Translations under genes and position numbers: made by a program | NCBI GenBank assembly: GCA_026545225.1 | Contig: CM048852.1 | Location: 60,709,146-60,773,145 of the forward strand | Source: Cornus controversa | Lineage: Eukaryota > Streptophyta > Magnoliopsida > Cornales > Cornaceae | Reading direction: 5' to 3' | DNA: 64,000 nucleotides | Shown here: positions 13,801 to 49,679 of the stretch, in pieces | How positions within the stretch are numbered: the first letter of the stretch is position 1 | Layout: each line of letters begins with the position of its first letter | Notes under the pieces: generated by a model | Told to the model about the DNA's origin: nothing | Database searches by the model: none | Seen by the model: only the letters and a program-made list of their open reading frames with translations

Positions 13801-16800
13801 AAGGAAGGGCTTTAGCATGGTGGGAGCAACTTCAAGTTACCCGAGAGCGTAGAGGTAAACCAAAGATCATAGAATGGGAGAAGTTGAAAAAAAAGATGAT
13901 GGAACAATTTTTGCCTTATAATTATGTCCAAACGATGCATCAACGTTTATATAATTTAAGGCAAGGAAGTCGCAGTGTTGAAGATTATACTGAAGAATTC
14001 TATCTGCTTGTTGCACGCAATGATTTATCAGAGAGTGATGAACAGCTCATGGCACGTTATATAAGTGGATTGAGGCCTAGTATACAAGAGGTTTTGTTTT
14101 TACATTCATTTTGGTCCATTTCGAAAGCTTCCCAAAGGGCTTTGGTGGTGGAGAAGCAACAAAACAAGCAAGTTTCACGCTCCAGCAGTAGTTCCACAAG
14201 ATCTCAATCCACTTTTAAGGGAGAATCAGCCCCTACAACAGTGCAAAATGGGGCCCAAAATATGAGACAGCAGCTTCCACAAGTTGTTGGAGTTAGAGAG
14301 CAGGCTGCCAATGCTGGAAACTGCCAAAATTATGGAAGGACAGCAGGCCAAAATCGAGGCGGAGACCTTGGGATGATGTGTTACAAGTGTGTAGAGCCCG
14401 GGCATAGATCGGTGGAGTGCAAAAAACATGAAAAACAGTTTTTGATCGAGGAAGATGATGCAACCCTAGAGATCGAGCCAAAATGTGATGATTCCCCAGA
14501 AGAAGAAGAGGATGATGATATCCTATATGTTGATGTCGGCGAATTCTTGGTCATGCAAAAGTCACTATTGCCTCCGAAACATGAGGATGAAGAAGACTGT
14601 TTGCGCACTAACATCTTTCACACCACTTGTAGTATTGGTGGAAAGGTGTCTAACATGATTATTGATGGCGGTAGTTGTGAGAACGTGGTGTCCCAAGATA
14701 TTGTGGAAAAATTGAAACTCAAAGCTGAGAAGCATTCGAGGCCTTACAAACTCTCTTGGTTTCGTAAAGGGAATGATGTAACCGTTTCACAACATTGCTT
14801 GGTGTACCGATAGATGCCTGTCATATATCGTTCCGGGGAGGAGGGGCGCTTGGTAATTTGATAAAGATACTTTACATCATGGTCGAAAGAACACGTACAC
14901 CTTTTGCAAGGATAACGTGAAAGTAACATTAGGTCCTATGCATGAGAAATTTGGTCCCAAACCTAAATTAGGGGAGGAAACAAATTTTCTTACCATGAGT
15001 GGCTTAATAAAAGAAGCTGAAAAAAGTGGGCAACTCTATGTTTTGGTTGCAAAAGAAGAGGTTGCACCCCCATCTATTCCTGCTATTATGGAGTCATTGA
15101 TGAAATAGTATATGAATGTATTTCCAGGTGACCTACCATCAGAGTTACCACCGATGAGAGACATTCAACATTGTATTGATTTAGTGTCTGGCGCGAGTCT
15201 TCCTAATAAAATAGCTTATCGATGAGTCCAAAGGAGCATGAGGAGTTGAGTTGTTAGATTGCGGAATTATTGAACAAGGAATTTATTCGTGAAAGCATGA
15301 GCCCATGTGCTACCCCAGCACTTCTTACTCCAAAGAAAGACGGTTCTTGGCGTATGTGCGTGGATAGTTGAGCCATCAACAAAATAACCGTCAAATACCG
15401 GTTTTCGATTCCTCGCCTTGATGGCATGCTGGATATGCTTGCGGATTCTTCAGTTTTCTCAAAGGTTGACTTGAAGAGTGGCTATCATCAAATTCAGATA
15501 AGACTAGGTGATGAGTGGAAGACAACCTTTAAAACGAAACGTGGGTTGTACGAGTGGTTGGTAATGCCATTCGGCTTATCAAATGCACCCAATACTTTCA
15601 TGCGCATGATGACCCAAGTGCTAAAACCACTTATTGGAAGGTGCGTAGTTGTTTATTTTGATGATATTTTGGTGTACAATCGCAACATTATTGAGCATTT
15701 ACAGCACCTTCATTCAGTTTTTGATATATTGAGGAGAGAGCACTTATATGCTAACCTAAAGAAGTGCAGTTTTACAACGGACTGATTGGTATTTTTGGGT
15801 TATGTGGTCTCTTCTACAGGTATTATGGTAGATGATGACAAGGTGAAAGCAATTCTTGAGTGGCCCACTCCTGCTACAGTGCGTGACGTAAGGAGTTTCC
15901 ATGGTTTGGCGACATTTTATAGGTGTTTTATTCGTAGTTTTAGCACCATTGTTGCCCCACTTACAGATTGCATGGGAAAGAAATTTTTTCAGTGGACCCA
16001 AGAGGCGGAGAAGAGTTTTCAAGCATTGAAGAAGAAATTACAGAAGCAACAGTACTTCCTTTATCGGATTTTGAAGCAGTATTTGAGGTAGATTGTGATA
16101 CTTCAGGTGTTGGCATTGGGGCAGTCCTTAATCAACGAGGGAGACCTATTGCATATTTCAGTAAGAAACTTACTAGTGCAAAGCTCAAGTACTTACGACT
16201 TGGATTTCTATGCCATTGTTCAAGCTTTACGCATTGATAGCATTATCTTTCTTACAAAGAATTTTTCTGGCATTCGGATTATGAAGCCCTCAAGCACATC
16301 AACAATCAATGCAACTTGAGTTCAATGCATGTAAATGGGTGAGTTATCTGCAGCAATTTACTATTCCTTTGAAGCATAAGGCTGGTACAATCAATCATGT
16401 AGTCGATGCCTTGAGTAAACGAGCCTCTTTTCTTGTGATTATGAGCACACAAGTGATGGGATTTGATTCTTTTCGAGATTTGTATGCAAAAGATCCTTAC
16501 TTTGCGCCTACTTTGGAAGAAGTAAAATCTGGGCAGCATTCGGATTATTTCTTGCAAGATGGATTTCTCTTCAAAGGCTTAAAATTGTGTATTCCTGAAT
16601 GCTCCTTGCGTGAAAAGATTATAATAGAGCAACACAATTTGGGACATTTTGGGAGAGATAAGAAGCCTAGAGATGATTAGGAATGAGTACTATTAGCCTA
16701 ACTTGAAGAGGGATGTCACAAGGCATGTAGAACGTTGCCACGTGTGTCAAAGAGCAAAAGGGACTGCAACTAATGCGGGACTTTACATGCCTTTGCCAGT

Positions 16801-19029
16801 ACCTAAGCAGCCTTGGGTGGCATTAGCATGGATTTTTTGCTTGAGTTGCCTCTTACTCAAAGGAAATGCAACTCTGTTATGGAGGTGGTCGATAGATTCT
16901 CAAAGATGACGCATTTTATTCCTTGCAAAAGGACTATGAATGCATCTAATATTGTTAATCTTTTTTTAAAGAAATTTACAGGTTGCATGGCATCCCACAC
17001 TCAATTGTTTCAAACAAAGACACCAAATTTATTGGTCACTTTTGGAGGACTCTATGAAAGAAGATTGGAATTGGAGCTTAATTTCAGCACTTCTTTTCAT
17101 CCTCAAACCGATGGGCAAACATAAGTTGTCAATAGGAGTTTGGAAATTTTGTTGAGATGCTTAACGGGTAACAGTTACAAAAATTGAGATTTAACTCTAC
17201 CCCTTGCTGAGTTTGCTTATAACTCATCAAAGAATCGTACTACAACTCTTTCTCCTTTTGAGGTTGTCTACAGAGCAAAACCAAATAGTGTGCTTGATTT
17301 GGCTCCAATTCCTATTTCCAAGAAGGCGAAGATATGGCTGACCTTATGCAAGACATTCATATGACAGTGAAACAGCAAATTGAAGCATCAAACGCGAAAT
17401 ATAAGGCTACAAAAGATTGAGTACCACCCAGTTCTTTCAAGAAGTTGGGTAATAGAAAGATTAGTCCAATCGAGGTGATTAAGAAGATTAATGATAATGC
17501 CTACCAACTTAAGTTACCAAGCCATATTCACACATCAGATGTTTTTAATGTCAAACATTTGGTTCCTTACAAGAGGAGTTCTTCTGATGAAGATTCCGAC
17601 AACTCGAGGACGTGTTCTTTCCAACATGGGGGGACTAATGTAGTTGTGGACCCAATAGAAGATTTCCTAAAAGTTTGGGAACACCCAAAAAAGGAAAGAA
17701 GTGGAAGAAGGGCAAGAAGAACAAGTAATGTCTAGCAAGTTCTGATTTAATTATGATTTTGAGCAATTTCCTAATTTTCAACAATTTACTTTATTTCATC
17801 AACTTTTCTATTTTTGTTTTTGATTTATATTTGGTAGTATAGCCATCTATGGCTAAGATTGAGAAAGAAGAAACATTATACAAAGCCTTGTAATTGTTAG
17901 AGTTTCATTATTGATTGAAATTATAATTTTAGAGTAGCGAATAGATTGCTTTTCAATACTCCTTTGATCGCTTGCTTTGTCCTTTATTTCATTTCGATAT
18001 TGTTGCGAAGAAGATTTCATCGTCTCCTCTTGGTTGCGCAGTATCAGTTTATGACATTTGCAGGGTCAAAATGTCTTAATACGCACACTCAACAACAAAC
18101 CAATTACCCATTCAAACAAGAAAACAAACATGAATATTTATTCATATTTGAGAGCTGCAAATAAAATAGTTTTGATCCTATGAAGTCTACATTACAACTA
18201 TCAATTTTCACATTAATTTTCTAATTTGAAGCTAAATTTCCACCCTCTCCAGAACTTTTCTTCACTTATTTCTAAGGACAATTTAAAGTATCAATCCTAT
18301 TCACACATTTTGTAAGCTAACTACAAAATTGTCAAGATCAACTACAGACTAAATAATTTAATGGTATATAAAAGAACAGTAACTTCTCATTTTATTATTT
18401 GATTACTCTTTGTTGTTCAATTTCAATGGTTTCTTCGTTACACAGTATTTAGTTCCTCATTCACTTTTTTAATTAGTTATGTCCACAGCAAAATAAATAA
18501 ATAAATTTCAATAATCCACAAGCATTTGAACTTTTTTTCTCTGAACATGTCACAATCACGTACCATATGCATATGCAATCGATGGATTATGCTCATTCCG
18601 TACAATGCTTTCTCCGTCTGCATACCATGCAATCTCTTCTCCTTGTCGAATTTCTCTCGGACTACTCCAAACACGAACGAAACGTTCAAAAACATTGACA
18701 AATAATTAAACCAAATTCAGAAATTCAAAATTAGAATCAAACACTCAGAAATCACAACATTAACGAAAAATTAACCAAATTTGGAAATTCAGAATGCACC
18801 TGAGCGGCCGAAACCGGACAGTAACAGTTACATTCTCTTTGGATCCCTCTGCATTCAAACTCTCGGAGTAAAAGTACTGTGGTTTACTCCTGGCGGACGA
18901 CGCCGGTGAACTCAGACCGTCAACGGAAGGTTCCGGAAACTGTTTGGACGACGAAGTCGTTGATGACGAAGGCGAGTTCACTCCTTTTGAGCTCGATTTC
19001 TTCGAGGTCGATCCTCGTTTCGGTGCCAT
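4812..19029 (-). CDS. KIN-7-type kinesin, 5' part of gene (4 exons, continues past left edge)
   Basis: Plus-end microtubule motor; the visible part is the N-terminal extension and the first third of the motor domain. Exons on the minus strand: 19029-18800 (start MAPKRGS, serine-rich leader, then [12 protein letters not shown]), 18661-18564 ([18 protein letters not shown]), 9278-9189 ([18 protein letters not shown]) and 4864-4812 ([15 protein letters not shown], the ATP-binding P-loop). Phases 2, 1, 1 and 0 join without a break to give 157 residues. The sequence is closest, from memory, to Arabidopsis At1g21730/MKRP-like KIN-7 proteins. An upstream in-frame ATG at 19050 would add seven residues; I chose 19029 because MAPKRG begins the family-like serine-rich leader. 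Introns are 138 bp, about 9.3 kb and about 4.3 kb; the long ones are filled with transposons. No neck, stalk or stop is in the window. The N-terminal Ser/Lys/Pro-rich leader could be an organelle signal, as proposed for MKRPs, but this is not shown here. Confidence 0.93.
5307..8068 (+). mobile_element. Deleted Ty3/gypsy derivative with TRIM nested inside
   Basis: The 5' LTR runs from TGTAGAACAG (5307) to about 5848, followed by a primer-binding-site-like ATATCAAAGCC (about 5849-5861). The internal region carries a gag-like segment (residues such as YQNC..SVDEYT, about 6200-7040), then the polypurine tract GGCAGGGGAGAG just before a truncated 3' LTR (about 7963-8068) that matches the first 100 bp of the 5' LTR. 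No protease, reverse transcriptase or integrase is visible, so this is a non-autonomous, broken fossil. A TRIM element (7037-7909) sits between gag and polypurine tract. The whole lies in kinesin intron 3. Confidence 0.75.
7037..7909 (-). mobile_element. TRIM retrotransposon with two 293-296-bp LTRs and 5-bp TSD
   Basis: LTRs at 7037-7332 and 7617-7909 begin TGTTG and end CAACA in either orientation. On the minus strand the primer binding site TGGTATCAGAGCAG follows the 5' LTR directly (about 7604-7616), complementary to initiator tRNA-Met, and a G-rich polypurine tract precedes the 3' LTR (about 7333-7345). The internal region is only 284 bp and non-coding, with repeated GTTGATCCGAAGATCCGAGA-like units. 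The flanks ATGAG (7032-7036 and 7910-7914) are an exact target-site duplication. By eye the LTRs differ at about 6% of positions, which suggests an insertion a few million years old. The structure is whole for a TRIM. Confidence 0.93.
8069..8680 (+). repeat. Dispersed direct repeats around CACATCTGGATAAATAATTT
   Basis: The motif CACATCT(G/A)GATAAATAATTTTAAGAATAGAGAG recurs near 8069, 8140, 8510, 8578 and 8648 with CCCTCCCTCCAA spacers. The block begins where the truncated 3' LTR of the gypsy derivative ends and is interrupted by a SINE-like stretch at about 8236-8445. I cannot assign it to a family. Confidence 0.55.
8236..8445 (+). mobile_element. Degenerate Au-type SINE, sense orientation
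   Basis: GGCCTAGTGGAAAAGGG resembles a pol III A box, GGAGGTTGCATGTTTGTGC a decayed B box, and GAGAGCAGTCACTTTGTA plus the CAGTC..CCTCCC body and GTAATGCACTTTT end follow the same order as in the SINE at 3818-3939 (opposite strand). No clear target duplication remains, so it is the older of the two. Confidence 0.6.
10432..11251. mobile_element. Non-autonomous hAT element, 820 bp, perfect 8-bp TSD
   Basis: Both ends carry the palindromic terminal motif CAGGGCCGGCCCTG, followed inward by GGCCTAGGCGG on one side and its inverse CCGCCTAGGGCC on the other. The flanks GATTTACC (10424-10431 and 11252-11259) are an exact 8-bp duplication, the hAT hallmark. The interior is AT-rich with an internal repeat of about 170 bp (CCAATACACTAGTCTGGGC.. 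at 10553 and 10710) and no transposase. Located in kinesin intron 2. Confidence 0.92.
11260..12947. other. Kinesin intron 2 sequence, no recognised feature
   Basis: AT-rich unique-looking DNA between the hAT element and the gypsy element, without a supported coding exon, tandem repeat or inverted repeat. It may include old transposon remnants that I cannot classify. Confidence 0.4.
12948..18046 (+). mobile_element. Ty3/gypsy LTR retrotransposon, full length but broken
   Basis: LTRs of about 398 bp lie at 12948-13345 and 17639-18036 or slightly beyond; the 5' LTR is followed by TGGCATCAGAGC (13346-13357, initiator-Met primer site) and the 3' LTR is preceded by the purine run GGGGGGACTA. The flanks CAGTTTATGA (12938-12947 and 18045-18054) repeat directly. 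Parts in order: gag with a CCHC zinc knuckle (about 13800-14430), aspartic protease (about 14600-14720), reverse transcriptase with the YFDD motif (about 15300-15790), RNase H (about 16080-16430), and integrase with HHCC (about 16640-17130) and its C-terminal domain (to about 17640). The order places it in Ty3/gypsy. The reading frame is interrupted at several places, so it is a fossil. LTRs differ at roughly 9% of sites by eye, pointing to an age of several million years. It lies in kinesin intron 2 in the opposite orientation to the gene. Confidence 0.93.
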
Positions 19030-19700
19030 TGTAGCTTCAAATTGAAACATGAATTACTAAAAATGAACAAAAACAACTTCGAATGTAGATTGCTTAACAA
19101 ATTAACAGATTATATAGTGAGATTTGAAGATTACCATAAAGGAATCAGCCAAGCAGTAAACAAATATAAATATAAATATAAATATAAATATAGAAAGAAA
19201 CAGAGATGGAATTGTATTGGAGATCTTTTTAGGAGTAAAGGATCTGTGAGAGAGAGTGAAAGAAGAACATAATCATTATAAGAATTATGAGAGAGAGAGA
19301 GAGAGAAATGTGAGGCTTATATTAGGGCTTTTTGGTGAGATTTTATTGCTTGCCTTGGAAGCGATGCCATTTCATTGAAAGGCAAAACGCATTTTCAATC
19401 CATACTTTTTACTAGTTAAAGAAGATCTATACTTTTAAAGAGAGAGAAAGAGGACACGAAGAGAGCGTGTGCGTAGGGAGAGAGATTGAGGGAGAGAGAA
19501 TGCGAGTGAGATAGTAGGTTCAACATCCAGTCTAGAGAGAGAAAGTGGTGAGAGAGAGTGTGTGTGGCATGAAAGGAGTTAAACGTCTTTCTCTCTTTCT
19601 CTCTCTCTCTCCTCTTTCTGAGAGACGCTGAAACGTTGATTTCTTTCCGTTTCCATTTTTTCCTTTTTGTTTGAGGCATTGAGCGCAGACGTACGAGTGC
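19030..19700 (-). promoter_or_regulatory. Kinesin 5' leader and promoter region, pyrimidine-rich on the sense strand
   Basis: Upstream of the kinesin start codon the minus strand is rich in CT repeats (19281-19310 and 19440-19620), a pyrimidine-patch arrangement common around plant transcription start sites. A short (AAATAT)n run lies at 19161-19191. No single TATA box can be assigned with confidence. Confidence 0.4.
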
Positions 19701-21947: not shown

Positions 21948-24039
21948 TTCTTAGATTATTATTTTTATTGTATTTTAGCTCTGAGAGTAGAATAGTATTT
22001 TCACACTTTTTTGTTTGGCTATATAAACCTATTTAGGTGTATTATCTTATTATCTTTACTAATAGAAACCATAGTCCCCATTTTCTCTTGTTCTCTCTTC
22101 GCAATTTTCACATGGTATCAGAGTAGTGATTCAGATGAGTTCTTTGATTGGTAATAACATGAAAGAGTTGCACATCCCATCTACGCGATCCACAGATCCA
22201 TTTTTTTTTTTTGCGTTTTGGCATCGATCTAGTTCTGGTATTACTTTCGTCTAGTATTGAACTGGTTTGTTCTTTGGCGTTACTTCTCGTTTTGTTTTTT
22301 TTGACATCTTGTCTTGGATTTTTGTTTTTTTTTTTTCAAATCTATTGGTGTTCGTTTATTTGATATTTTTCACAATTGTTGGTGAAAGAGATAATTCTCT
22401 ACAATCAATTAGTGTAAGATTGAATGGCAATAATTACTCGTATTAGAGTTATGTAATGAATAATTTTTTGAAAGGGGAAAAAATGTGGGATTATGTCAGC
22501 AGTGTGGTGAGCAAACCCGCAAATCCTAAAGATGAAAAATATGCAGATTTATTGGATAATTGGGAATCAAACAACTCAAAAATTATTACTTGCATTAATA
22601 ATTCCGTTGAATACTGCATTGGTACATAATTGGCAAAATATGAAATAGCAAAATAGGTCTAGGATCACTTGGCAAGATTGTACACACAATCCAATTTTGT
22701 CAAACAGTATCAGTTGGAAGCCGATATCCGAGCAGTGCAACAAAAGGATATGAGTATTCAGGAGTTTAACTCTACCATGTCTGATCTTTGGGACCAACTG
22801 GCTCTCACGGAGTCAGCGTACCTCCAATGCCATATTGACTACCTTGCTCGTAGAGAGGAACAACGTCTTGTTCAGTTTTTTATGGCCCTACAGGGTGATT
22901 TTGAGGGACTTCGGGAAAATATTCTGCATCATAATCCCCATGCCCTTGTTGATGCAGTTGTAAGTGAACTTTTGGCTGAAGAGACACGACTTAAGACTAA
23001 GGCAGGAAAGGGCCCTCTCCCAATGCCTAATCAATCTGTTTTGGCTGTCCCTACTAAGCCATCTTTGAGCAATCAAACAAGACTCTCTTCGGAGGTTGGT
23101 TTTAATGAATGCAATTTTTGTAAGTAAAAAGGTCATTGGAAGACCTAATGTCCTAAATTGTTTAATAAAGCACAACCACCACAGTAGCAATGGTGGCAAC
23201 CCCCACCTCAGCAGTAGTGGAGGCAACCCCCGCCTCCGCAGCAGTGGAGGCAGCCCCCACCTCAACCGAAGTGGCGTTCGAGAGGGCAGTCCCAACAGCA
23301 AGTTTATAGGCCTCCACAGCCCACCACTGCAGCATATGTGCTTGAATTTGCATCTTCTTTGGATCCCAACATAGACGCTCTTACAGAATTGTTTCAGTAG
23401 TTCTTTGCCACACAGCCACTGCCATATCCCATGTCCACTTCATCTTCAATAAGTCTGTCATCTCCTAACCCTTCAAGTATGACTACATCTTTGTGGGTTT
23501 TAGACGCTAGTGCCTCTCATCACATGTCCCCTGATTCATCATCCTTTATATTTATATGTCACTTTACTTCACCTGCGTCTGTCATAACTGCTGATGGAAC
23601 TCCCATACCCTTGGTAGGAGTTGGTTCTTTTCGTACACCTCATTTATCACTTTCTAATGTCTATTGCATTCCCAACCTTGCAATGAATCTCATTTCAGTG
23701 GTATGCGATTCTGGTTATTCTATTCACTTTTCTTCCACTTCTAGTCATGTGCAAAATCCTCAATCTTAGAAGCTAATTAGGATAAACCGTAGCCAGGGGA
23801 ACTTATATGTTTTGGACGAGTTGCGATTTCCAGATGTAGCTGCTTTGGGTGTTGATTTGTCTTCCTTTCGTTTAGATTCCTCTTCTTTTAGTTTTTACTT
23901 GTGGCATTCTAGACTTGGGCATGTTTCGGCCCCTCGTTTAAAATATTTGGTTTCTAGAGGATCTTTGGGTATATTACAATCTCATGATATTTTAATAGTC
24001 GGAATTGAAAATAGAGGCACAAAGATGCCTGGTGCTTGA

Positions 24040-24893
24040 TAAGTCCATCTGACTGGCCAGTGGTTTCACATCAACCTGTAAACTAGTAATCCAAAATGAC
24101 AGAATGTACAGAAGGACTGTCTAAGGACTGCTCTATTGATGCATGTGTCACGGCTATTTGAGTTACATGTAGTGTGTGTGTGTCATCTACATTGCATCTA
24201 AATAAACAAATTGTTCGTTTCAAGTTTTACGCTTCTTAAACCATTTTAAATAAGTTTATTATTCCGTTGTTTATGGATGAGTTATGACTTCATTGTTTAT
24301 AGGCAAGTTATATTTCATGCTTATGTGTAAATGTATATTAGTGAATACTTGTGAAGCATGTGAAAAGGGAAATAGGAACATGTTAGAAAGAACAACGTTG
24401 CGTGCATGTTCTCTTAGAAATTCTTACTTTAGTCTAAAATGTTTAAGGGGGGACAGTTGAGTCATTTATACTAAGCCATCGTTGCTCACCCTACAGATGT
24501 ATCATATTTTTCAGGGAAAAGGGATAGAAATGATGTTACTTTAGCTCCAGAAAGCTTGAAGTGGCATATTTCTTTTTTGGTGTTTTGTAGTTATACTTGC
24601 ATGCACTAGGTATAACTTGGATAACATGTATGTTACGTTATTCGGGGCCAGTCTGTTGGCTTAGTACTTTTGTACTTGTATGACATGTTATATTAAGGAG
24701 TTTTGTGATTTATCTTCTCTATTGAGCACGTTTAATGTATGTTAATTATAGTTAAGTTGTTTGTCACTTCTGCAATGATGACTTTGATGTCGGCTCGGGG
24801 TCCGGGATTCGGATCATTTTCTATTCATTTCTTATATTTTCTTTTAGTCGTAACTCGGGTCTTTTGGATTCGGGACGTGACAATTTGTACCTG
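24040..24893. mobile_element. Non-copia insert within the copia remnant, possible LTR piece
   Basis: About 850 bp without copia similarity separates the two copies of the protease-proximal copia segment. Its right end GGGACGTGACA resembles the end of a gypsy-type LTR. No coding sequence and no clear target duplication. Confidence 0.35.
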
Positions 24894-25905
24894 AAGTTGC
24901 ATCTTATTTGGATCCCAACATAGATGCTATTGCAGAACAGTTTCAACAGTTCATTGCCACACAACCAGAGCCATACACCATGTTCACTCCATCTTCAATA
25001 GGTATGTCATCTTTTAACCCTTCAGGTATGACTACACCTTTGTGGGTTTTAGACTATGACACCTCTCTTCACATGTCACCTGATTCATCATCCTTTATAT
25101 CTATATGTCACTCTACTTCTGCTGGTCGTATTCTTCTTTCACTCTATGTAGATGACATGATTATTACACGCGATGATGTTGATGGAATTGTAGCATTAAA
25201 GATTGAATTAACTAATCAGTTTGACATGAAGGATTTGGGCCCTCTACGGTATTTCTTAGGTATTGAGGTAGCATTTTCACCTAAGGGTTATATTCTTTTT
25301 CAGTCAAAGTACATAGCAGACATCCTTCAACGAACTTGTCTTATAAATACTCGAACTGTTGATACCCTATCGAGTTTCATGCTCGCTATGCTCCTATAAA
25401 TAGTAATCATTTGCCTGATCTCACATTGTATCCGACTATTGTTGGTAGCTTAATCTATATCACTATTACTAGCCCCGACATTGCATATGTTGTCCACGTT
25501 GTTAGTCAATTCATTGCTTCCCCTTCTACAATTGATTGGGTTATTGTTCTTCGCATTCTACATTATCTTCGGAGCATTTTCTGTCAGAGTCTTTTATTTC
25601 CTTCAATGTCTTCTTTGGAGCTCTGGGCATACTCTGATGTTGATTGGGTTGGTGATCCGACTGATCGTAAGTCTACTACAGGTTTCTGCGTTATCTTTGG
25701 AGTACTCTTTGTTAGAGTCTTTTATTTTCTTCGACGTCCTCTTTGAAGTTTTGTGCATACTCTGATGTTGATTGGGCTGGTGATCCGATTGATCGTAAGT
25801 CTACTATAGGTTTTTACATCTTTTTAAGTGGCTCTCTCATTTCTTGGAAAAGCGAAGCAAAAAGTTGTCTCTCGATCTTCCACATAGGCTGAGTACCGTG
25901 CTATT

Positions 25906-26333
25906 AGAGCTGCAAATGAACCGAGCTGCTCGGGCTCGGGCTTGTTAAAGGCTTGGCTCGAGCTCGTTTGTTAAGCAAATGAACCGAGCTTAAGCTTGAT
26001 TTTTAAGCTCGTTTAATAAACAAGCCAAGCTCGAACAATGTTAAGCTCGGCTTGTGAACATGAACTCGTTTATGTTCGTGAACAAAACTCATTTAGAGCT
26101 CGTTTAGGGCTCGTAAGCTTGTGAAAATGTTCATGAACATAGGCTTGTGTAGGCTTATTTACGTTCATGAACAAGCTAAAACGATCTTGTACACGAACCC
26201 AAACGAATTTTTTTTATTAAACGAGCCAAGCCCGAGCTTCTCAAAATAATGACGATCCCGAGTGAGCAAGCTCACAAACAAACGAGCTCGAGCCTGAGCC
26301 CGAGCAGGCTCAAGCTTGGCTTAGTTCATTTGC
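25906..26333. mobile_element. hAT-like MITE, 428 bp, inserted in the copia RNase H region
   Basis: Inverted ends GCAAATGAACCGAGC / GCTTGGCTTAGTTCATTTGC enclose GC-richer subterminal repeats of CGAGCTCG and AAGCTCG type and no coding region. Flanks GTGCTATT (25898-25905) and GTGTTATG (26334-26341) are an imperfect 8-bp duplication (6 of 8). The copia sequence is similar to its relatives directly on both sides, which fixes the insertion limits. Confidence 0.8.
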
Positions 26334-26832
26334 GTGTTATGACATCTACTATAAATGAGGTTGTGTGGTTGCGTTGGTTATTAGCATATATGGGTGTCAC
26401 TCTTTCTACTCCCACCCCTCTTTATTGCGATAATAAGAGTGTTATTCATATTACTCACAATTCAGTCTTCCATGAGCGAACCAAACACATTGAGATCGAT
26501 TGTCATACCACTCGGCATCATCTTCAGCGTGGAATGATTACTTTACTTTTTGTCTCATCTTCCATGCAGATTGCAGATTTCTTTACGAAGTCTCAAGCCG
26601 TTCAACACTTTCGTTTTTTTGTTGGCAAACTCTCGAAACTTTTTGCTGCTGCATCGTGAGTTTGAGGGGAAATATTAGATATTAGATTGTTATTTTTAGC
26701 TGTGAGGATAAAATAGTCTTTTCACACTTTTTTGTTTAGCTATATAAACTCTTTTGTGTATTCTTTTATTATCTTTACTAATAGAGACCCTATCTCCCTT
26801 TTCTCTTCTTCACTCTCTTTGCAATTCTCATA

Positions 26833-43400: not shown

Positions 43401-45849
43401 ACAACACCTAACTCACACCACTAGAGTCTAGCACAAACAGTGTATCTCAAACACTCCAAAGCTAAACATAGTCAAACTTCATCAAACTTCATGGTCAAGT
43501 ATGACACAATCAAGCCCACATCGGTGTAACATAAAAGAATTGATTATCGCATGAAGTTGATAGAGATGAGTTTTTAGTGAATTTTAATTAATTTAGTGAA
43601 TTTTATTGATTTCTTGGAGACCATTTAGCATAAGTAATTATTCATTTATAAATTGCATGTCCATGTCTTTATTAAAAAAGTGAGTAGTTGTTTTTTTACT
43701 ATATCAATTAATACTAATAGATTTAAGAATGAAATAAATGAACATTTATACTATATATATAACATATTAGAAGATAAAAAATATATACATAATACACGTC
43801 AGAACAAATAGTGTGAAAATATATGTTTACATGTTTACAATATTAAACTTTATATTTACAAATTTACAATATTAAGCTTTATATTTTTTACATTTTAAAA
43901 TAAATTAATAAATATTAACGCTAAACGGGTTGATTCCACCCGTGTTGACCTGACATTACCCGTTAAATTAAACGAGTTAAGTGGGTTGAACCCGAATCCG
44001 ACACATTTTTTTCGTGTCGTAATCGTGTCGACCTATTTATGACCCGAACCCGTTTAACCCAAACCCACTAACTTCGTGTCGATTTCGAGTAGTGTTGGCT
44101 GCTCGTGTCGAATTTTGCCACCCCTAGGTCTTTACCGCCTTATTCTTCCCCATCTTTTTAAGTGTGTTTTCCACTTCCTTATGGTTAATTTATTCATCAT
44201 TCCTATGTTAAATTTAATTTCTTCTCATCACCTCTCCTATGGGGATAAATAGGGAGGGTGGGATTATGAAATCAAGTTGACGTAGAATAGAAAGAATGCA
44301 GAGGATGAGAAGATGGAAGATGAGATAAGGCTAGAAGAACGAGATGAGAAGACAAATGAAGGAGGTAAGAAGGCAGATTGAAAAAATATTCAGTCTGAAG
44401 AGTTGAGATGAGCAAGAACAAAGAGAGGGCAGAAGAGAGAGAGAATTCTCAAACCACAATAATATTCCAATAATCAAAGCTGAATATTTTGATTACATAG
44501 TAGCCTTTCTATAGGCAAAGACCATAACTAAACCCTAAGAACTCTAAAAATAGGAAAATATGAAAGTAACCCTAAAACTAAACATTATCATAAATAACAA
44601 TAAATAGAATTACATAACCCTAATTTACAAAAATTCCTATTTTTATTTATCTTTTCCCCTTCTCCAATAGTAGGTGCGAGTCATATGCAGTTCCAGCTTT
44701 CAGTTCATGTCTTGGTCTCCATCGGATTGATAACCAAGGCATGAGTATTGGTGATATTTGTGTTTCCAACTCCTTGTTAGTTTCACAAAGGCTTATACAG
44801 ATATCATGGCATACTAGCAAATAGAATTATCCATCTCAACTCTAATGAAGTCCAAAATTGTGTCCAAATTCAAAAACACATCATGGATTAAATGTTGAGA
44901 GAGAGAGAGAGTTATAATTTGTGTCATCATCAAAAGGTGTTCTTATGGCTAAAACACATTCAGTAGATATGTGTTTCCAAGACCGAAGGCGTCAAACATG
45001 GAAAACATAATGCTAAACTGATTTGAAATGAATGATCAAGCATGTGACAAGGTAGCAACTGAGATATGAAGCCAAGCCATTAAGCAGTATAAGAAACTAT
45101 TTTCCCAAAATTTGCATTTATATATATATATATATATATATTCTCTCAACCGGTCACATATCAATTGAAGATATAAATTTTTCTAATCAAGTTGAGATAT
45201 CATAGATTTAAAATAAAAAACATTATAGTTAAATATTTCTAATATAGTTGGGACAATTTTCTAGTGCTTACCTGGTTTTTACAAATACAATATCGCAGGT
45301 TGGGCAGTCTGTCCAAAAAAATCCAAGAATGCTCTCTGACTCAGATCTGCATCCCTGACTAAAAGTGTCTCCGGTTTCTCTATTGCAAAACTGAATCTCA
45401 TGATTAGATCGTTGAATAGCTAAAAACTTTGCATCTAGAGAATATCGCATTGATAACACTGGCCCTTCGCTTATTGAGTCACAGGTGGGAGCAACATGTG
45501 GAGCAAAGGGAGCAGTTTTCCATGAGAAAACCTAGAAAAAAGAACGGACGTGCACAATTCAGTTCAAACAGTACAAACTAAAAAACTTAAATGCTGAAAT
45601 ATTTGTCTCGTCACTTGTGGAAAATAATTGTTGATAGTGCAAATGCACAAAAAGTATTTTAGTTATGATCTATCACATTACCTGATCAGACGTCATTGAG
45701 AGTAGTAACTTATTCCCATCATCATAAAATAAACCTATTGATCCAGGAATGCTGCATCTTAAAGGTGGATACTGAATATAAACATGTGACAAAGCACCAG
45801 ATCCACAGAAACCAACACTAAGCTGAGAACTTGATGCTTTCCCAAACAT
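28183..45849 (-). CDS. RMC1: RMC1/Mic1-family protein (regulator of MON1-CCZ1), 749 residues, 11 exons
   Basis: In animals RMC1 is a subunit of the MON1-CCZ1 complex that activates Rab7 on late endosomes; the plant protein is known mainly by homology. Coding exons (minus strand): 45849-45682, 45531-45272, 40755-40602, 38244-38135, 38036-37949, 32063-31728, 31645-31571, 30669-30062, 29293-29185, 29087-28908 and 28344-28183. All have GT..AG borders and the phases join to one 2250-nt frame. The start MFGKASSSQ begins the family-like N-terminus with YIQYPPLRCSIPG and GLFYDDGNKLL; an earlier in-frame ATG lies in the leader. Residues 1 to about 350 form the beta-propeller-like part; a serine-rich, poorly conserved stretch follows (exon 8); then DEMYSFVF and the C-terminal Mic1 domain (VKVHPNLCVLTIQLL, LLLVQDGYYIEALRYARK). 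Arabidopsis At3g12010 is, from memory, the orthologue with similar length. The stop (28183-28185) falls slightly before a family-like SIAA ending. Five of the introns carry transposons but the frame is intact, so the gene is probably functional. Confidence 0.96.
28338..28532. repeat. 97/98-bp tandem duplication covering the last RMC1 3' splice site
   Basis: Copies at 28338-28434 and 28435-28532 begin TAGTGACCTGAAATCCACCC and differ by one base in a T run. The unit includes, on the minus strand, the acceptor ATTTCAG and the first bases (GTCACTA) of exon 11, so a second identical acceptor now lies 97 bp upstream within intron 10. The near identity shows a recent event. Confidence 0.95.
29698..29728. 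repeat. (TG)n microsatellite in RMC1 intron 8
   Basis: A run of alternating TG followed by GCGCGCG, about 30 bp, potential Z-DNA-type sequence. It lies in the intron between exons 8 and 9 of RMC1. Confidence 0.9.
31097..31340 (-). repeat. 121-bp tandem duplication with tRNA-like (SINE-type) motif
   Basis: Two copies start CCAACCAGGCCCTACATTC at 31097 and 31218. Each contains, on the minus strand, a B-box-like block (AGGTGTAGGGTTCAAGCCCC and GGTGCAGGGTTCAAGTCCC). A related motif is at about 37,260-37,340. I read these as remnants of a tRNA-derived SINE that was then duplicated. It lies in RMC1 intron 7. Confidence 0.65.
33452..34185. mobile_element. Non-autonomous hAT element, 734 bp, perfect 8-bp TSD
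   Basis: Termini TAGGGGTGCACA and TGTGCACCCCTA are exact inverted repeats and the flanks CATACAAG (33444-33451 and 34186-34193) are an exact 8-bp duplication. Subterminal regions on both sides are packed with GGTTCC/GGAACC units (GGAACCGGAACCG and inverses), probable transposase-binding repeats. The core is nearly pure AT. No transposase. It lies in RMC1 intron 5. Confidence 0.95.
34861..35222. repeat. 182-bp tandem duplication
   Basis: Two copies start CCTGAGGT(C/T)GTTGAGT at 34861 and 35043 and both end AAATAGGCTCACA. They differ by a handful of substitutions and short indels. Internal to the TIR element. Confidence 0.9.
35390..35520. repeat. 49-bp tandem repeat, about 2.7 copies
   Basis: Units begin ATTGGAGAAATAAACAAAAT at 35390, 35439 and 35488 and are almost identical, so the array is young. 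Confidence 0.92.
35856..37068 (+). mobile_element. Probable solo LTR, about 1.2 kb, copia-type
   Basis: The stretch starts TGTTGGC and ends GCCTAACA, canonical inverted LTR termini. It holds a promoter-like TATATAAAG at about 36,463, a CA/GA-rich leader and the LTR motif GATTAGGTCCCGTGG, also found in the related LTR fragment at 47.6-48.5 kb. A GATCGATCGA-rich segment occurs in both. No internal coding region follows and no target duplication is seen, so a solo or recombined LTR is likely. Fossil in RMC1 intron 5. Confidence 0.65.
37235..37345 (-). mobile_element. SINE-like tRNA-derived fragment
   Basis: On the minus strand TTAGCTCAGTGATATCCCC resembles an A box and GCAAGGTTCAAGTCCCGGG a B box at tRNA-like spacing. 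A clear body and tail were not found. A short repeat unit (ACTTGGGTTACTTCAAAGCA at 37,361 and 37,421) lies next to it. In RMC1 intron 5. Confidence 0.5.
38573..39794 (+). mobile_element. Cassandra retrotransposon with 5S rRNA-like LTRs
   Basis: LTRs: 38573-38858 (286 bp) and 38928-39794 (286 bp once a nested hAT insertion is excluded). Both carry a 5S-rRNA-like segment (CCCATCAGAACTCC, AAGCGTGCTTAGCTGGGAG, AGGATGGGTGACC), the hallmark of Cassandra and the source of its pol III promoter. The primer site TGGTATCAGAGCC is at 38861-38873; the internal region is only 69 bp and ends in a purine tract (CCAAGGGGGGTGG). Flanks ATTTC (38568-38572 and 39795-39799) are an exact 5-bp duplication. Structure otherwise complete; Cassandra never codes for protein. 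It lies in RMC1 intron 3, opposite to the gene. Confidence 0.95.
39165..39737. mobile_element. hAT element, 573 bp, inside the 3' LTR of Cassandra
   Basis: Termini CAGTGACGGACCCAG and the inverse of GGGTCCGTCCCTG are hAT-type inverted repeats. Flanks TGTCCGGA (39157-39164) and TGTCTGGA (39738-39745) are an 8-bp duplication with one difference. The interior has GAGAGAG-rich sequence and a G-rich segment near 39,620-39,700, without coding. Removing it restores an LTR exactly as long as its partner, which confirms the limits. Confidence 0.93.
41876..41949 (+). mobile_element. Short SINE-like insertion with 15-bp TSD in the LINE
   Basis: A 74-bp segment with the B-box-like GAGGGTTCAAGTCCC is flanked by AGTTGTCACAATTTT (41861-41875) and AGTTGCCACAATTTT (41950-41964), a 15-bp duplication with one difference, as left by LINE-driven retroposition. 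It is truncated at its 5' side, with no A box. Confidence 0.75.
42019..42150. mobile_element. Mutator-like MITE, 132 bp, perfect 9-bp TSD
   Basis: The whole element is a near-perfect hairpin: GGACCATGCTACTTAGACAG at the left and the inverse, GGAAAATGATAGTTAGGCAG, at the right, meeting around TGCATGTGGTAGGTCCCACC. Flanks TTTTGTAAA (42010-42018 and 42151-42159) are an exact 9-bp duplication, the length made by Mutator-like transposases. Inserted in the RTE LINE. Confidence 0.92.
42272..44126. mobile_element. Non-autonomous hAT element, about 1.85 kb, in the LINE
   Basis: Termini TAGGGGTGGCAA and TTGCCACCCCTA are exact inverted repeats; flanks GGTCTTAC and GGTCTTTA(C) are an 8-bp duplication with a one-base slip. 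Subterminal CGTGTCG and CCCGTTTAA units are repeated on both sides; the interior is highly AT-rich and has no transposase frame. LINE sequence continues on both sides. Confidence 0.9.
44240..44670 (-). mobile_element. Possible LTR remnant
   Basis: Read on the minus strand the segment has the architecture of a plant LTR leader (GGGTTACTTTCATATTTTCC, GGTCTTTGCCTATAGAAAGG, a run of CT repeats), but no partner LTR, primer site or coding region is present. The assignment is tentative. Confidence 0.35.
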
Positions 45850-46312
45850 GTTTCTTAGTTCCTCGCCTTTCAACTAACTCAAATGTTGCAGAGCTTAGAA
45901 AGTACTACAGTGGGGAAGCCTAAACCAAGCTTATAAGCTACAATAACACTGAAGAGAATGGGGGGGAAATTAATAAAAAGGGAAGAAAAAATTAGTGTGG
46001 CAGCACCAAACGTGTGAGAGAGAAAGCATATCATTTCAGATAAGTGAAAAAAATACTTCTATAAATGATGAACATCAAACCTTTTGTCATGCTCCAATTA
46101 AAATCTCTGAGCTATTGGAATTGCGCCTACAGTGTTCAGTATAAACCTCGAGATATTTATGAAAGAGGAACATGAACTTAAACTTTTCGTCTGAGCTATA
46201 AAGCAAAAAAAAAGAGAGATAAATGCAACTTTTGGTTAAAAGGAAAGAAACAAAACACTAATACCAAGATATTATTTTCCCATCGCATTATCACATAAGA
46301 CAAGACAATAAA

Positions 46313-48764
46313 TCATACCACATTCTGCATGCAAGTCCTTAATGCAAGAAATTCTTTTAAACACATATCTCGTTCAACTTCTGGAACTTTTGCGGCAACA
46401 CAACTCCCATATTGTTTTGCCTGCAGAAATGGAGTTATAATTGTAATTTCAATTACAAGGCATTGAGCACTTCTATTCACTTCTTAACAGCAACTCATGG
46501 TAAACATCCTTTGTGAGACCTGAAAACTCAAAAAGTAAAATAGTAATGGACTAAATAAAGAGAGCTATAAAATAAGTGATGACAACTGTATAAGTTATTA
46601 AAAGCGCAAAATATTTTTTTGACAAGTAAAATTTAAATTTGACAAGTACACAATTTATTAAAACCGAACCTGCACGGAACCAATGTTCAAAAACTTCAAA
46701 TTTTAAATATATTATTCACACAACACCATGGAACCAATGTTCAAAAACTTCAAATTTTAAATATATTATTCACACAACACCATGGAACCAATGTTCAAAA
46801 CTTCAAAAGATTCACACAGCCTATCACATCTTAGTATCTAGTGCACATAAAGAGACGCAATTCTGGTTTTAGATGCAAGCACAAACTTCAATTCAACTCA
46901 ACCCAATAAAGCCTTAAACCAACTACTCCAACACTATTGCAAGAAACTTATTTTACCATTATGCTCTATGCTTCTATCTAGTGCCATACTTTCAAATTTT
47001 CAATTAGCCCATATGCTATTTGTCTTTCCGTACTATCTACACCTAGGCCGATTTCAGTCTTCCCTTACCCTAGAAATGCCCCTCAATGAGGACTACATTA
47101 GTTTTCTGCACTAGCAAACATGAATATGTCCTATATGTGACAAAACCGTCTTAATTGGTTTTTTCATTCTTCTACCTCCTCGGTGCAACTTCTGACGTCT
47201 CACAAATATTATTTATTTGTTATCCTATCTTGTCTATCCATACATGCATCTCAACATACACATCTTGCTTTCACTAATTCTATAAACACATTTCTTAGTT
47301 GCCCAACATTTGTTCATTAAGACATGGCTGGTGTTTAACTGTTTCATGAAACTCTCTTTTCAGCTTCACAACACATGTCGCACAATACCTCAAAAGCACT
47401 CATCTATAGCCCTGTTTGGTATGTACTTTGTTTTGGTGTTTTGTTTTTGGACTGACACTGTTCATACTATAGGAGCCCAAAACATGTTATGTGCCGGCCA
47501 CCAATTCTGTTTTGCCTTAAAACGTTTGGTTAAAAAATTTCGTACAAAACAAAGTTTGTAATCTTGCTTTTTAGTTTTTGTTTGTGTTTCAAATTAGTTA
47601 CCACTGCCCAAGGGAAAATCATAGAATTTAAAGCTTCAATGAAGGTAAAAAGGTAAATTCAACTCTCAAAACCGTTCACTCACCAAATTAGGATCATGCA
47701 TTCATATGATTTAACATGTTAGGGTTTTAATTTGAAATATTTCAATCCTTAAAGTTTTTTGGGGGGAATACTTAAATTGTTTTTGGAAATCAAAATCCTC
47801 AGAGAACTAGGACCGGGAATTCAATCAATCGAATGATCAATTAAATTAAATCTCACTGGATTAGGTTGGATCGAACCTATCTCTCGATCGATCGAAAGTT
47901 GCAAAATGACAATTCCTAAAACTGTTTCAAACTCTTTTAAACCCTGATCTTTTTCAACCCCCATGGTCTATATAGAGACCCTATGCTTTCAGAGAAAGCA
48001 CACAAGCATATATTGAGCATCGTATACAACTATACATAGTTGGTAGGTGTTCATGAATGTTGAAACTTATCAATCATAGAGCTTTTCAACAATTTTAGCA
48101 CCACAACCAATCCTACACAACAAACAACCAATTGGAGGTGACTAGTCGTTAACTGGCAGAAACAGAGGTTGGAGTGGATCATCTGGTGCGAGTCCAGGTC
48201 AGATGTAATTTGGGGATTCTTGAGTTTAAATTCTGGTTAACCTAGTGTTATATGCCTTTCCTCTAATAGTAGAGTTGATCTGCCTAGACTAGGTCCCGTG
48301 GTTTCTCTCCTATGGGGTTTTTCATGTAAAAATTGGTATCCGTGTGTGTAGGTGATTTTTTTGTTTTATATTTATGCACTCTACCTACTTTCACTTCCTT
48401 ATTGATCGACAATTAAATTTTAGTTAATTGTTGTAATTTCAATTCAAATATACAGTTAGGGTTTTGAAAGACCTATCCACCCCCTCTAGGTGGAATTGGA
48501 CATTGCGTACTCCGACCATCAGAGCCTAGTCCTATTTCTTCAACCTTGATAAAAGTTATGCACCTATATTACAAAAACATCACAGTATGCTTGTGACCTC
48601 ATCCAACAATTCATATATGATATATGTAACTCTAGTGTTCCAGATGCTTAATTCCAAAAACAAAAGGAATTTAAAACAGCACTTAATTGAGCACAATAAC
48701 AGACCTGTGATGCACAATTCACTAAAATGAGCTTGAGTTTAGAAGTAGGGTTCTTTTCTTTCAT
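46313..48764 (-). CDS. Twin CX9C (CHCH) mitochondrial-type small protein upstream of RMC1
   Basis: Two coding exons on the minus strand, 48764-48705 and 46420-46319, join in phase 0 across a 2.3-kb intron with GT..AG borders. They give MKEKNPTSKLKLILV followed by NCASQAKQYGSC and MCLKEFLALRTC: two exact C-X9-C pairs (cysteines at residues 16, 26, 39 and 49), the fold of small intermembrane-space proteins imported through MIA40. The closest family I recall is the NDUFAF8-like complex I assembly factor. If the donor at 46318 is not used, the frame ends at TGA 46313-46315 after 56 residues (NVV); if spliced, the acceptor before 45,870 adds two to five residues. A leader exon probably ends at 49498 (donor GTATGC). 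The frame ends within tens of bases of the RMC1 start in the spliced form. There is no obvious polyadenylation signal or promoter between them. Confidence 0.85.
46676..46800. repeat. 54-bp tandem repeat, about 2.3 copies
   Basis: Units start GGAACCAATGTTCAAAAACT at 46676, 46730 and 46784 with almost no differences. The array lies in the intron of the CX9C gene. Confidence 0.93.
47580..48540 (+). mobile_element. Copia-type LTR fragment with primer-site-like end
   Basis: Shares GACTAGGTCCCGTGGTTTC and the GATCGATCGA block with the LTR at 35856-37068. Near 48,480-48,535 it passes into CCACCCCCTCTAGG and ATCAGAGCC, the junction and initiator-Met-type primer site common in copia elements. No coding region follows. 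A broken fossil in the intron of the CX9C gene. Confidence 0.6.
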
Positions 48765-49497
48765 AGTTGCATACCTGCAAAGAAATGCCCAGAAAGATAA
48801 ATACATTGATAATCATAGCTTAGAAATTTGTTAGCATATATACTAAGGCTCAACTAAACAAAACTTATTCCAACATTACAGTGTCAGCTATATGCATCTT
48901 GTTTCACCATTCCAATTTGTCCAGCCATAGATAATATGTTATCATGATCAGCATAAATAACGATGATAGTGAGATTGCATGCGAATATTGAACATCATTG
49001 AAGAAGTGTCATTCAAATTTAATAAAAACAAGTGATCCTTTACATCAGTATGATATATGATAGATGTTTTAACTAAGATGACATTCATTAATATCTTTAT
49101 TGAAACTTTCTGATTCAATTCTATGTTGATCATTTCAAATGTGAGCATCATAAGCCACATAGTTTTCCCGTAGCATTTAGTCTTCAAAGAGACAATAGAA
49201 TTGGATTCTTTTTACATTTGTCACTCTAAAATTAACCTCATTCCATTTTAAACAATATTTTTCACATATTAGTGATGACTCCATTTGGCCAAGTTTCAAA
49301 TGGAATAGGTTTCGAAATAGTATCATTTGACATGTGTAGCCAAAGTCTAATTGTGCGCAGATAAGTAAAATAAAAAATTAGGGTTTTGTAGAATTCGCTG
49401 AACAGATTAATCAAAACCTAGAGGAAATTCTTCGCGTCCCAATTGCGGCAATTAACAATGAAATTTGAACAGGAAAAGTCAGAAGTGAGAAGCATAC

Positions 49498-49620
49498 CTT
49501 GTGTTCTGATCATTAGTGGAGACAAACACCGAAAAGGCACAGTCTATCTGTAGCTTGGGATCTAACAGTGTATCAAGACGAGTTGCAGTACACTACCTAA
49601 CGGTCTTGCAACAAGGAGAG
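49498..49620 (-). other. Probable 5' leader exon of the CX9C-RMC1 transcription unit
   Basis: The minus strand has a strong donor (CACAAG before GTATGC at 49498-49492). Joined to the acceptor at 48774 (TTTGCAG), it supplies untranslated leader before the CX9C start at 48764. A nine-codon ORF (MIRTQGMQL) would overlap that start. The transcription start is not defined; GA/TA repeats lie just upstream at 49,615-49,670. Confidence 0.5.
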
Positions 49621-49679
49621 AGAGATAGAGACCGAGCTATATATATATATGTGTGTGTATATATATCGTTTATATTTTC

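What the first reader, a model, noticed from the sequence alone, without database searches (positions are those of the whole stretch)
45847..48764. Twin CX9C protein encoded directly upstream of RMC1: possible bicistronic host transcript
Seen: two exons on the minus strand give a 56-60 residue protein with two exact C-X9-C pairs, and its frame closes either at 46313 or, if spliced to the exon that carries the RMC1 start, within a few tens of bases before the RMC1 ATG (45849). No polyadenylation signal or separate promoter is evident between them. Known: twin CX9C proteins are MIA40 substrates of the mitochondrial intermembrane space, and RMC1 works with the late-endosomal Rab7 exchange factor. 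Inference: one mRNA may code for both, the small ORF acting as a peptide-coding uORF that links a mitochondrial factor to an endolysosomal one. From memory, the Arabidopsis RMC1-like locus is listed with a conserved upstream ORF; I could not verify this.
Basis: partly seen in the sequence, partly recalled or inferred. Interest (0 to 1): 0.82.

Follow-up and report, generated by a model that had tools for sequence, protein, structure and literature searches.

The report
Plant RMC1's known twin-CX9C upstream gene
A plant gene for an endosome-trafficking protein carries, just upstream on the same strand, a tiny gene for a mitochondrial-type protein; this pairing was described in land plants in 2007, and the tiny protein looks like the plant version of a human respiratory-chain assembly factor.

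Summary
On the minus strand, directly upstream of RMC1, a 59-residue twin CX9C protein is encoded in three coding exons, not two: 48764-48705, 46420-46319, and most likely 46195-46178. The stop at 46313 is read-through into an intron. Both introns sit exactly where introns were reported for plant conserved-peptide uORF homology group 8 (HG8). Length, cysteine spacing and downstream partner also match. HG8 (At3g12010) was published in 2007 as upstream of a "Mic1-like" ORF in the land plants sampled, and called a probable dicistronic transcript in 2012. Two things are added here. Pfam identifies the downstream ORF as RMC1, whereas the 2012 table calls it a TGF-beta/GDF15 relative. The small protein aligns better with human NDUFAF8, a complex I assembly factor, than with seven other twin CX9C proteins; seven of these eight human sequences were recalled, not fetched. 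Searches of this 772 Mb genome found both genes only here. The single mRNA was not tested: no cDNA or plant relatives were available. Most likely this is a housekeeping dicistronic transcript. A mitochondrion-endolysosome link, or translational coupling, is not shown.

The parts
49498..49640 (-). Putative 5' UTR exon 1 (TSS assumed near 49640, below TATA-like runs at 49674-49643); donor CACAAG|GTATGC. Contains ATG at 49513 of a 9-codon mini-uORF
   Evidence: TSS and splice inferred, no RNA evidence
48705..48774 (-). Exon 2: end of mini-uORF, whose TGA overlaps the next ATG as ATGA; start codon (48764) and first coding exon of the twin CX9C protein, ending after Cys17-Ala-Ser-Gln
   Evidence: own-genome match of query residues 1-22, E 1.7e-4
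46319..46420 (-). Exon 3: second coding exon, carries Cys27, Cys40, Cys50; donor AATGTG|GTATGA four residues after Cys50
   Evidence: own-genome match of query residues 11-55, E 1.1e-17
46178..46195 (-). Favoured third coding exon (LRRKV-stop); acceptor TTTTTTTTTGCTTTATAG|CTCAGA. Alternative: 45948-45931 (CYCSL-stop)
   Evidence: intron position as in HG8; splice inferred
46081..46177 (-). Intercistronic part of exon 4 with a 28-codon uORF (ATG in weak context) and the ATG of a 6-codon uORF, the two overlapping as ATGA
   Evidence: inferred exon
45949..46080 (-). Putative fourth leader intron (CAAAAG|GTTTGATG ... TTCTCTTCAG|TGTTAT, 132 nt)
   Evidence: inferred from splice consensus only
45847..45849 (-). 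RMC1 start codon
28186..45849 (-). RMC1 gene body as far as matched: RMC1_N on frames from 45849 to 45268; RMC1_C on open frames 30702-30040, 29346-29083, 29102-28881, 28368-28186. Exon borders not worked out; the end of the gene may lie lower

Best explanation
This is the local copy of plant CPuORF homology group 8: a 59-aa twin CX9C protein gene, found once in the genome, fused transcriptionally to RMC1, giving a capped mRNA with the small ORF first and RMC1 second. The small protein is most likely the plant counterpart of NDUFAF8: a small CHCH-fold protein oxidised by the mitochondrial disulfide relay, which stabilises NDUFAF5 during assembly of the complex I Q module. RMC1 would be translated from the same mRNA by leaky scanning or reinitiation, or from alternative leaders. 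Shown here: the coding frames, motif, consensus splice sites at the published intron positions, RMC1 identity, a single locus found and the NDUFAF8-like sequence. Shown in print for other land plants: the shared cDNA. Inferred: the mRNA structure in this plant, the NDUFAF8 function, and how RMC1 is translated.
For: Peptide of 59 aa with C-X9-C, 12 residues, C-X9-C. Published HG8 values are 59-62 aa in land plants, nine residues within each pair, 11-15 between pairs, introns after the third residue past Cys1 and the fourth past Cys4, and a Mic1-like mORF in all land-plant cases. Each is met. PF21029 RMC1_N 109.9 bits; PF07035 RMC1_C. Own genome: 2 matches to the peptide, both this locus. RMC1_C: 3 matches, all in this gene, 1 over the cut-off, 0 of 14 control genomes ring. 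RMC1_N: 4 matches, 1 over the cut-off, this gene; 2 of 14 control genomes (a bacterium and an archaeon) ring, 1 over the cut-off, so that model has some background. HG8 called probably dicistronic, twin CX9C cluster 21, no known function. NDUFAF8 comparison: local score 80 against recalled human NDUFAF8 (0 of 2000 cysteine-fixed shuffles reach it, z 10.3). Seven others: CHCHD5 pieces 61 (z 6.5, 0 of 2000), TRIAP1 37, CMC4 36, CMC1 35, CHCHD7 33, COX17 31, CMC2 28. The recalled NDUFAF8 agrees with the 74 aa and all six aromatic positions in PMC7042492. The human HG8 member in the 2007 paper (given as EST BU541024, not named further) is 74 aa too. The disease residue Phe55 lies at Cys3+4, as does F44 here.
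Against: No cDNA, long read, ribosome or proteomic data were available here. PF16860 (CX9C) scores 23.8-25.3 bits, below its cut-off of 26.4. The CHCHD5 N-terminal hairpin also matches beyond shuffles, and is the best PDB sequence hit (E 0.0042). The passages seen of the 2007 and 2012 papers do not name NDUFAF8; the 2007 paper has CHCHD7 as the nearest other CHCH family. NDUFAF8 was not found in the protist Andalucia. The human NDUFAF8 letters were recalled, not fetched. The last coding exon is undecided between two candidates.
Confidence: 0.8

Rival explanations
1. The small ORF is mainly a cis-acting uORF that represses or conditions RMC1 translation, its peptide being the sensor.
For: It precedes the Mic1-like ORF in all land-plant cases of the 2007 paper. 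Further short uORFs and ATGA overlaps lie in the inferred leader. The 2007 authors considered a dual role.
Against: The peptide is conserved in eukaryotes where no mORF seems to follow it, and is a full CHCH domain. The 2012 review lists it under putative dicistronic transcripts, not true CPuORFs.
Confidence: 0.15
2. Two separate, closely spaced monocistronic genes with their own transcript ends.
For: 328 genomic nt lie between them, and plants can use weak poly(A) signals (general knowledge). One AATAAT (46276), one AAGAAA (45856) and one TATAA (45935) exist.
Against: No AATAAA or TATAAA between them. The AATAAT lies inside intron 3, before the small ORF's stop. Published land-plant cDNAs join the two.
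Confidence: 0.08
3. The peptide belongs to another twin CX9C family, such as CHCHD5, CHCHD7/COX23 or TRIAP1/Mdm35.
For: CHCHD5 is the top PDB sequence hit, score 61. The 2007 tree put CHCHD7 nearest to HG8 among the other CHCH families.
Against: NDUFAF8 scores higher and aligns over both hairpins. CHCHD5 aligns over the first pair only. CHCHD7 is near shuffle level (176 of 2000 shuffles reach it) and TRIAP1 little above it (59 of 2000). HG8 is a clade apart from the CHCHD7-, Cox17-, Cox19- and Mrp10-like groups in the published tree, with a human member of its own.
Confidence: 0.1

Closest known systems
Plant CPuORF homology group 8 (HG8), Arabidopsis At3g12010 (PMC2075485, PMC3426882)
   Same: Length, four cysteines, both intron positions, position upstream of a Mic1-like/RMC1 ORF, single copy
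   Different: No difference found in what could be tested. The 2012 table labels the mORF a TGF-beta/GDF15 (Mic-1) relative; here Pfam says RMC1
NDUFAF8 (C17orf89), complex I assembly factor (PMC7042492)
   Same: Twin CX9C, tyrosine at Cys2-3, invariant phenylalanine at Cys3+4, EFxALRxC, basic residues after Cys4 (in the favoured splice form)
   Different: Human protein is 74 aa with a longer N-terminus and 15 residues between pairs (12 here; from the recalled sequence). NDUFAF5 binding untested in plants. The human HG8 member ends in its own poly(A) according to ESTs in PMC2075485; that it is NDUFAF8 is my inference
Drosophila CG9865 uORF3 (group 8-like; PMC2276209)
   Same: Twin CX9C ORF upstream of a larger unrelated ORF
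   Different: Different mORF (putative mannosyl transferase); an independent fusion according to PMC2075485

Membership tests
CPuORF homology group 8 | 59-62 aa in land plants | tested here: met
   59 aa with either candidate third exon; range
CPuORF homology group 8 | C-X9-C, 11-15 residues, C-X9-C | tested here: met
   12 residues between pairs
CPuORF homology group 8 | Introns after residue 3 past Cys1 and residue 4 past Cys4 | tested here: met
   CASQ|A and CMQNV|; published positions. Splice sites are inferred from consensus, not from RNA
CPuORF homology group 8 | Directly upstream, same strand, of a Mic1-like/RMC1 ORF | tested here: met
   RMC1_N 109.9 bits, RMC1_C
CPuORF homology group 8 | On the same mature mRNA as the mORF | not testable with these tools
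   No plant cDNA collection held
NDUFAF8 | Best match among twin CX9C families | tested here: inconclusive
   Score 80, next best 61, of 8 yardsticks, 7 recalled and 1 pieced; no full proteome
NDUFAF8 | Invariant Phe55 and conserved Tyr32 | tested here: met
   F44 at Cys3+4, Y24 at Cys2-3; human residue numbers, their cysteine offsets from the recalled sequence
NDUFAF8 | Stabilises NDUFAF5, needed for complex I Q module | not testable with these tools
   Human data only
Pfam CX9C (PF16860) | Score over curated cut-off | tested here: not met
   23.8 bits (59 aa) and 25.3 bits (55-aa form) against 26.4
RMC1 | RMC1_N and RMC1_C domains over cut-off | tested here: met
   109.9 against 27.3 bits; 56.1 against 26.9 bits for one of four RMC1_C frames

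The most novel reading that the evidence does not exclude
Land plants have kept for hundreds of millions of years one mRNA that encodes a complex I assembly factor (NDUFAF8) followed by the Rab7-exchange cofactor RMC1. Plant HG8, left without a function in the CPuORF papers seen, is that assembly factor, and translation of the pair is coupled.
Probability: 0.2. Interest if true: 0.5.

Novelty: already known. Interest (0 to 1): 0.25.

Why it matters
The arrangement itself has been in print since 2007. What could be useful is a functional name for HG8 (NDUFAF8-like) and the correct name for its mORF (RMC1). That turns an 'uORF of unknown function' into a testable dicistronic gene pair, and warns that RMC1 mutants with upstream insertions may also hit complex I.

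Tried and rejected
Relatives: RMC1 exon in viral contigs (6 pattern matches, 0 confirmed), peptide in viral contigs (9, 0 confirmed) and in prokaryote genome contigs (48, 0 confirmed). These are virus and prokaryote collections, so this says nothing about conservation in plants; that evidence is taken from print. RNA families and tRNAs: 0 in the window. The bacterial promoter/terminator scan (none found) does not apply to plants. No structure prediction was run, because the spliced protein is not contiguous in the window.

One search (at least 3 of 5 terms) listed 8 of 8 papers; none of the 8 holds both NDUFAF8 and 'upstream ORF'. Of the 9 papers (NDUFAF8 and Arabidopsis) I looked at passages of 4. 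Two were reference-list mentions only, and the passages shown name no plant NDUFAF8. One search listed 20 of 45 papers; none of the 20 holds both CPuORF and NDUFAF8. I therefore cannot say that the identification is unpublished. Papers seen: passages of PMC3426882, PMC2276209, PMC2075485 (plus its section 11), PMC7042492, PMC10434966, PMC11362043, PMC7050145, PMC8790184 and PMC7106846 (there the 'HG8' hits in the passages shown were HG80 to HG88, not HG8); PMC9305500 was searched without hits. All others were seen in search listings only.

Against my reading and kept: the PF16860 score below cut-off, the CHCHD5 resemblance, CHCHD7 as the nearest other family in print, NDUFAF8 missing in Andalucia, and the undecided last coding exon. 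On rechecking I corrected the length of the alternative splice form: it is 59 aa, so length does not favour my gene model.
Full report
What is there. On the minus strand of this plant window (one place in a 772 Mb, 61-contig assembly) lies a small gene immediately before RMC1. Its coding exons are 48764-48705, 46420-46319 and, most likely, 46195-46178, with GT...AG introns of 2284 and 123 nt. They encode MKEKNPTSKLKLILVNCASQAKQYGSCVAAKVPEVERDMCLKEFLALRTCMQNVLRRKV (59 aa). The stop at 46313 is reached only by reading into intron 3. It cannot be excluded without RNA. I favour LRRKV because its acceptor is strong and the basic tail resembles that of the human relative.

RMC1. The downstream ORF begins at 45849. 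Its first two coding exons, joined, score 109.9 bits against Pfam RMC1_N. Four open frames at 30.7-28.2 kb match RMC1_C, one of them over the cut-off by itself. In the whole genome only this gene gives an RMC1_N match over the cut-off (1 of 4 matches; 2 of 14 control genomes also ring, 1 over the cut-off), and all 3 RMC1_C matches are in it (0 of 14 controls). The small protein also turns up once (2 matches, both exons of this locus). These searches score only the best candidates.

Is it more than chance. A contiguous twin CX9C frame turned up 4 times among 62,397 ORFs of 60 Markov-sampled windows, and once among 1,131 ORFs of the real window, in an unrelated frame. Spliced frames were not modelled. 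The motif alone would be a weak argument. The agreement with a published family is the strong one.

What it is. Hayden and Jorgensen 2007 (PMC2075485, passages and section 11) described uORF homology group 8. It is 59-62 aa in land plants, with nine residues inside each cysteine pair, 11-15 between pairs, and introns after the third residue past Cys1 and the fourth past Cys4. All land-plant cases lie upstream of a Mic1-like ORF, with Arabidopsis At3g12010 as the locus. The present gene meets each of these: 59 aa, spacing 12, introns at CASQ|A and after CMQNV. A 2012 review (PMC3426882, passages) calls HG8 a probable dicistronic transcript of twin CX9C cluster 21 without known function. It lists the mORF as a TGF-beta/GDF15 (Mic-1) putative ortholog. 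The Pfam result here says RMC1, so that label looks like a clash of names (my inference).

What the small protein is. Against eight human yardsticks (seven recalled, one pieced) the best score is NDUFAF8 with 80; CHCHD5 follows with 61 and the other six lie at 28-37. With cysteines held fixed, 0 of 2000 shuffles reach the NDUFAF8 score; the same is true of the CHCHD5 score, which covers the first cysteine pair only. The recalled NDUFAF8 agrees with the length and the six aromatic positions given by PMC7042492 (passages). In that paper NDUFAF8 is needed for NDUFAF5 stability and Q-module assembly, and p.Phe55Leu is a patient variant; the matching residue F44 is present here. HG8's human member is 74 aa in the 2007 paper, as is NDUFAF8; the paper gives it only as an EST. 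Against this: CHCHD5 tops the PDB list, the Pfam CX9C model stays below its cut-off, the passages seen of the HG8 papers do not name NDUFAF8, and NDUFAF8 was not detected in Andalucia.

How it probably works. One promoter, with TATA-like runs at 49674-49643, drives a leader with a 9-codon mini-uORF whose stop overlaps the small gene's start (ATGA). Then come the 59-aa ORF, two more short uORFs that overlap as ATGA, and RMC1. This leader rests on splice consensus and an assumed transcription start. The small protein would be made first and oxidised by the mitochondrial disulfide relay. RMC1 would follow by leaky scanning or reinitiation, or from other leaders. The stop of the first ORF lies upstream of splice junctions, so such an mRNA should be sensitive to nonsense-mediated decay unless ribosomes reinitiate (general knowledge, untested). 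[quoted passage not shown]

Verdict. Real, correctly spotted from raw sequence, and already known in print. The added value is the corrected gene model, the RMC1 name and the NDUFAF8 lead.

Noticed in passing
13276-17732 (+): Ty3/gypsy-type retrotransposon remains: gag (PF03732, 75.3 bits, cut-off 24.1) at 13749-14810, with a zinc knuckle just below its cut-off; further reverse transcriptase- and integrase-like frames by eye only
   Followed up: partly
22663-26656 (+): Ty1/copia-type fragments: RVT_2 66.7 bits (cut-off 31.6) at 24881-25396; gag- and RNase H-like frames by eye only (26180-26656 had no Pfam match)
   Followed up: partly
about 41.3-41.9 kb (-): Broken LINE-like reverse-transcriptase fragments inside an RMC1 intron, by eye; coordinates approximate
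   Followed up: no
18763-19053 (-): Frame resembling a plant kinesin N-terminus ([11 protein letters not shown]), by eye from recall; no Pfam match at 0.1
   Followed up: no
46676-46807: Tandem repeat inside intron 2 of the small gene, period 54, 2.5 copies, 98% matches
   Followed up: partly
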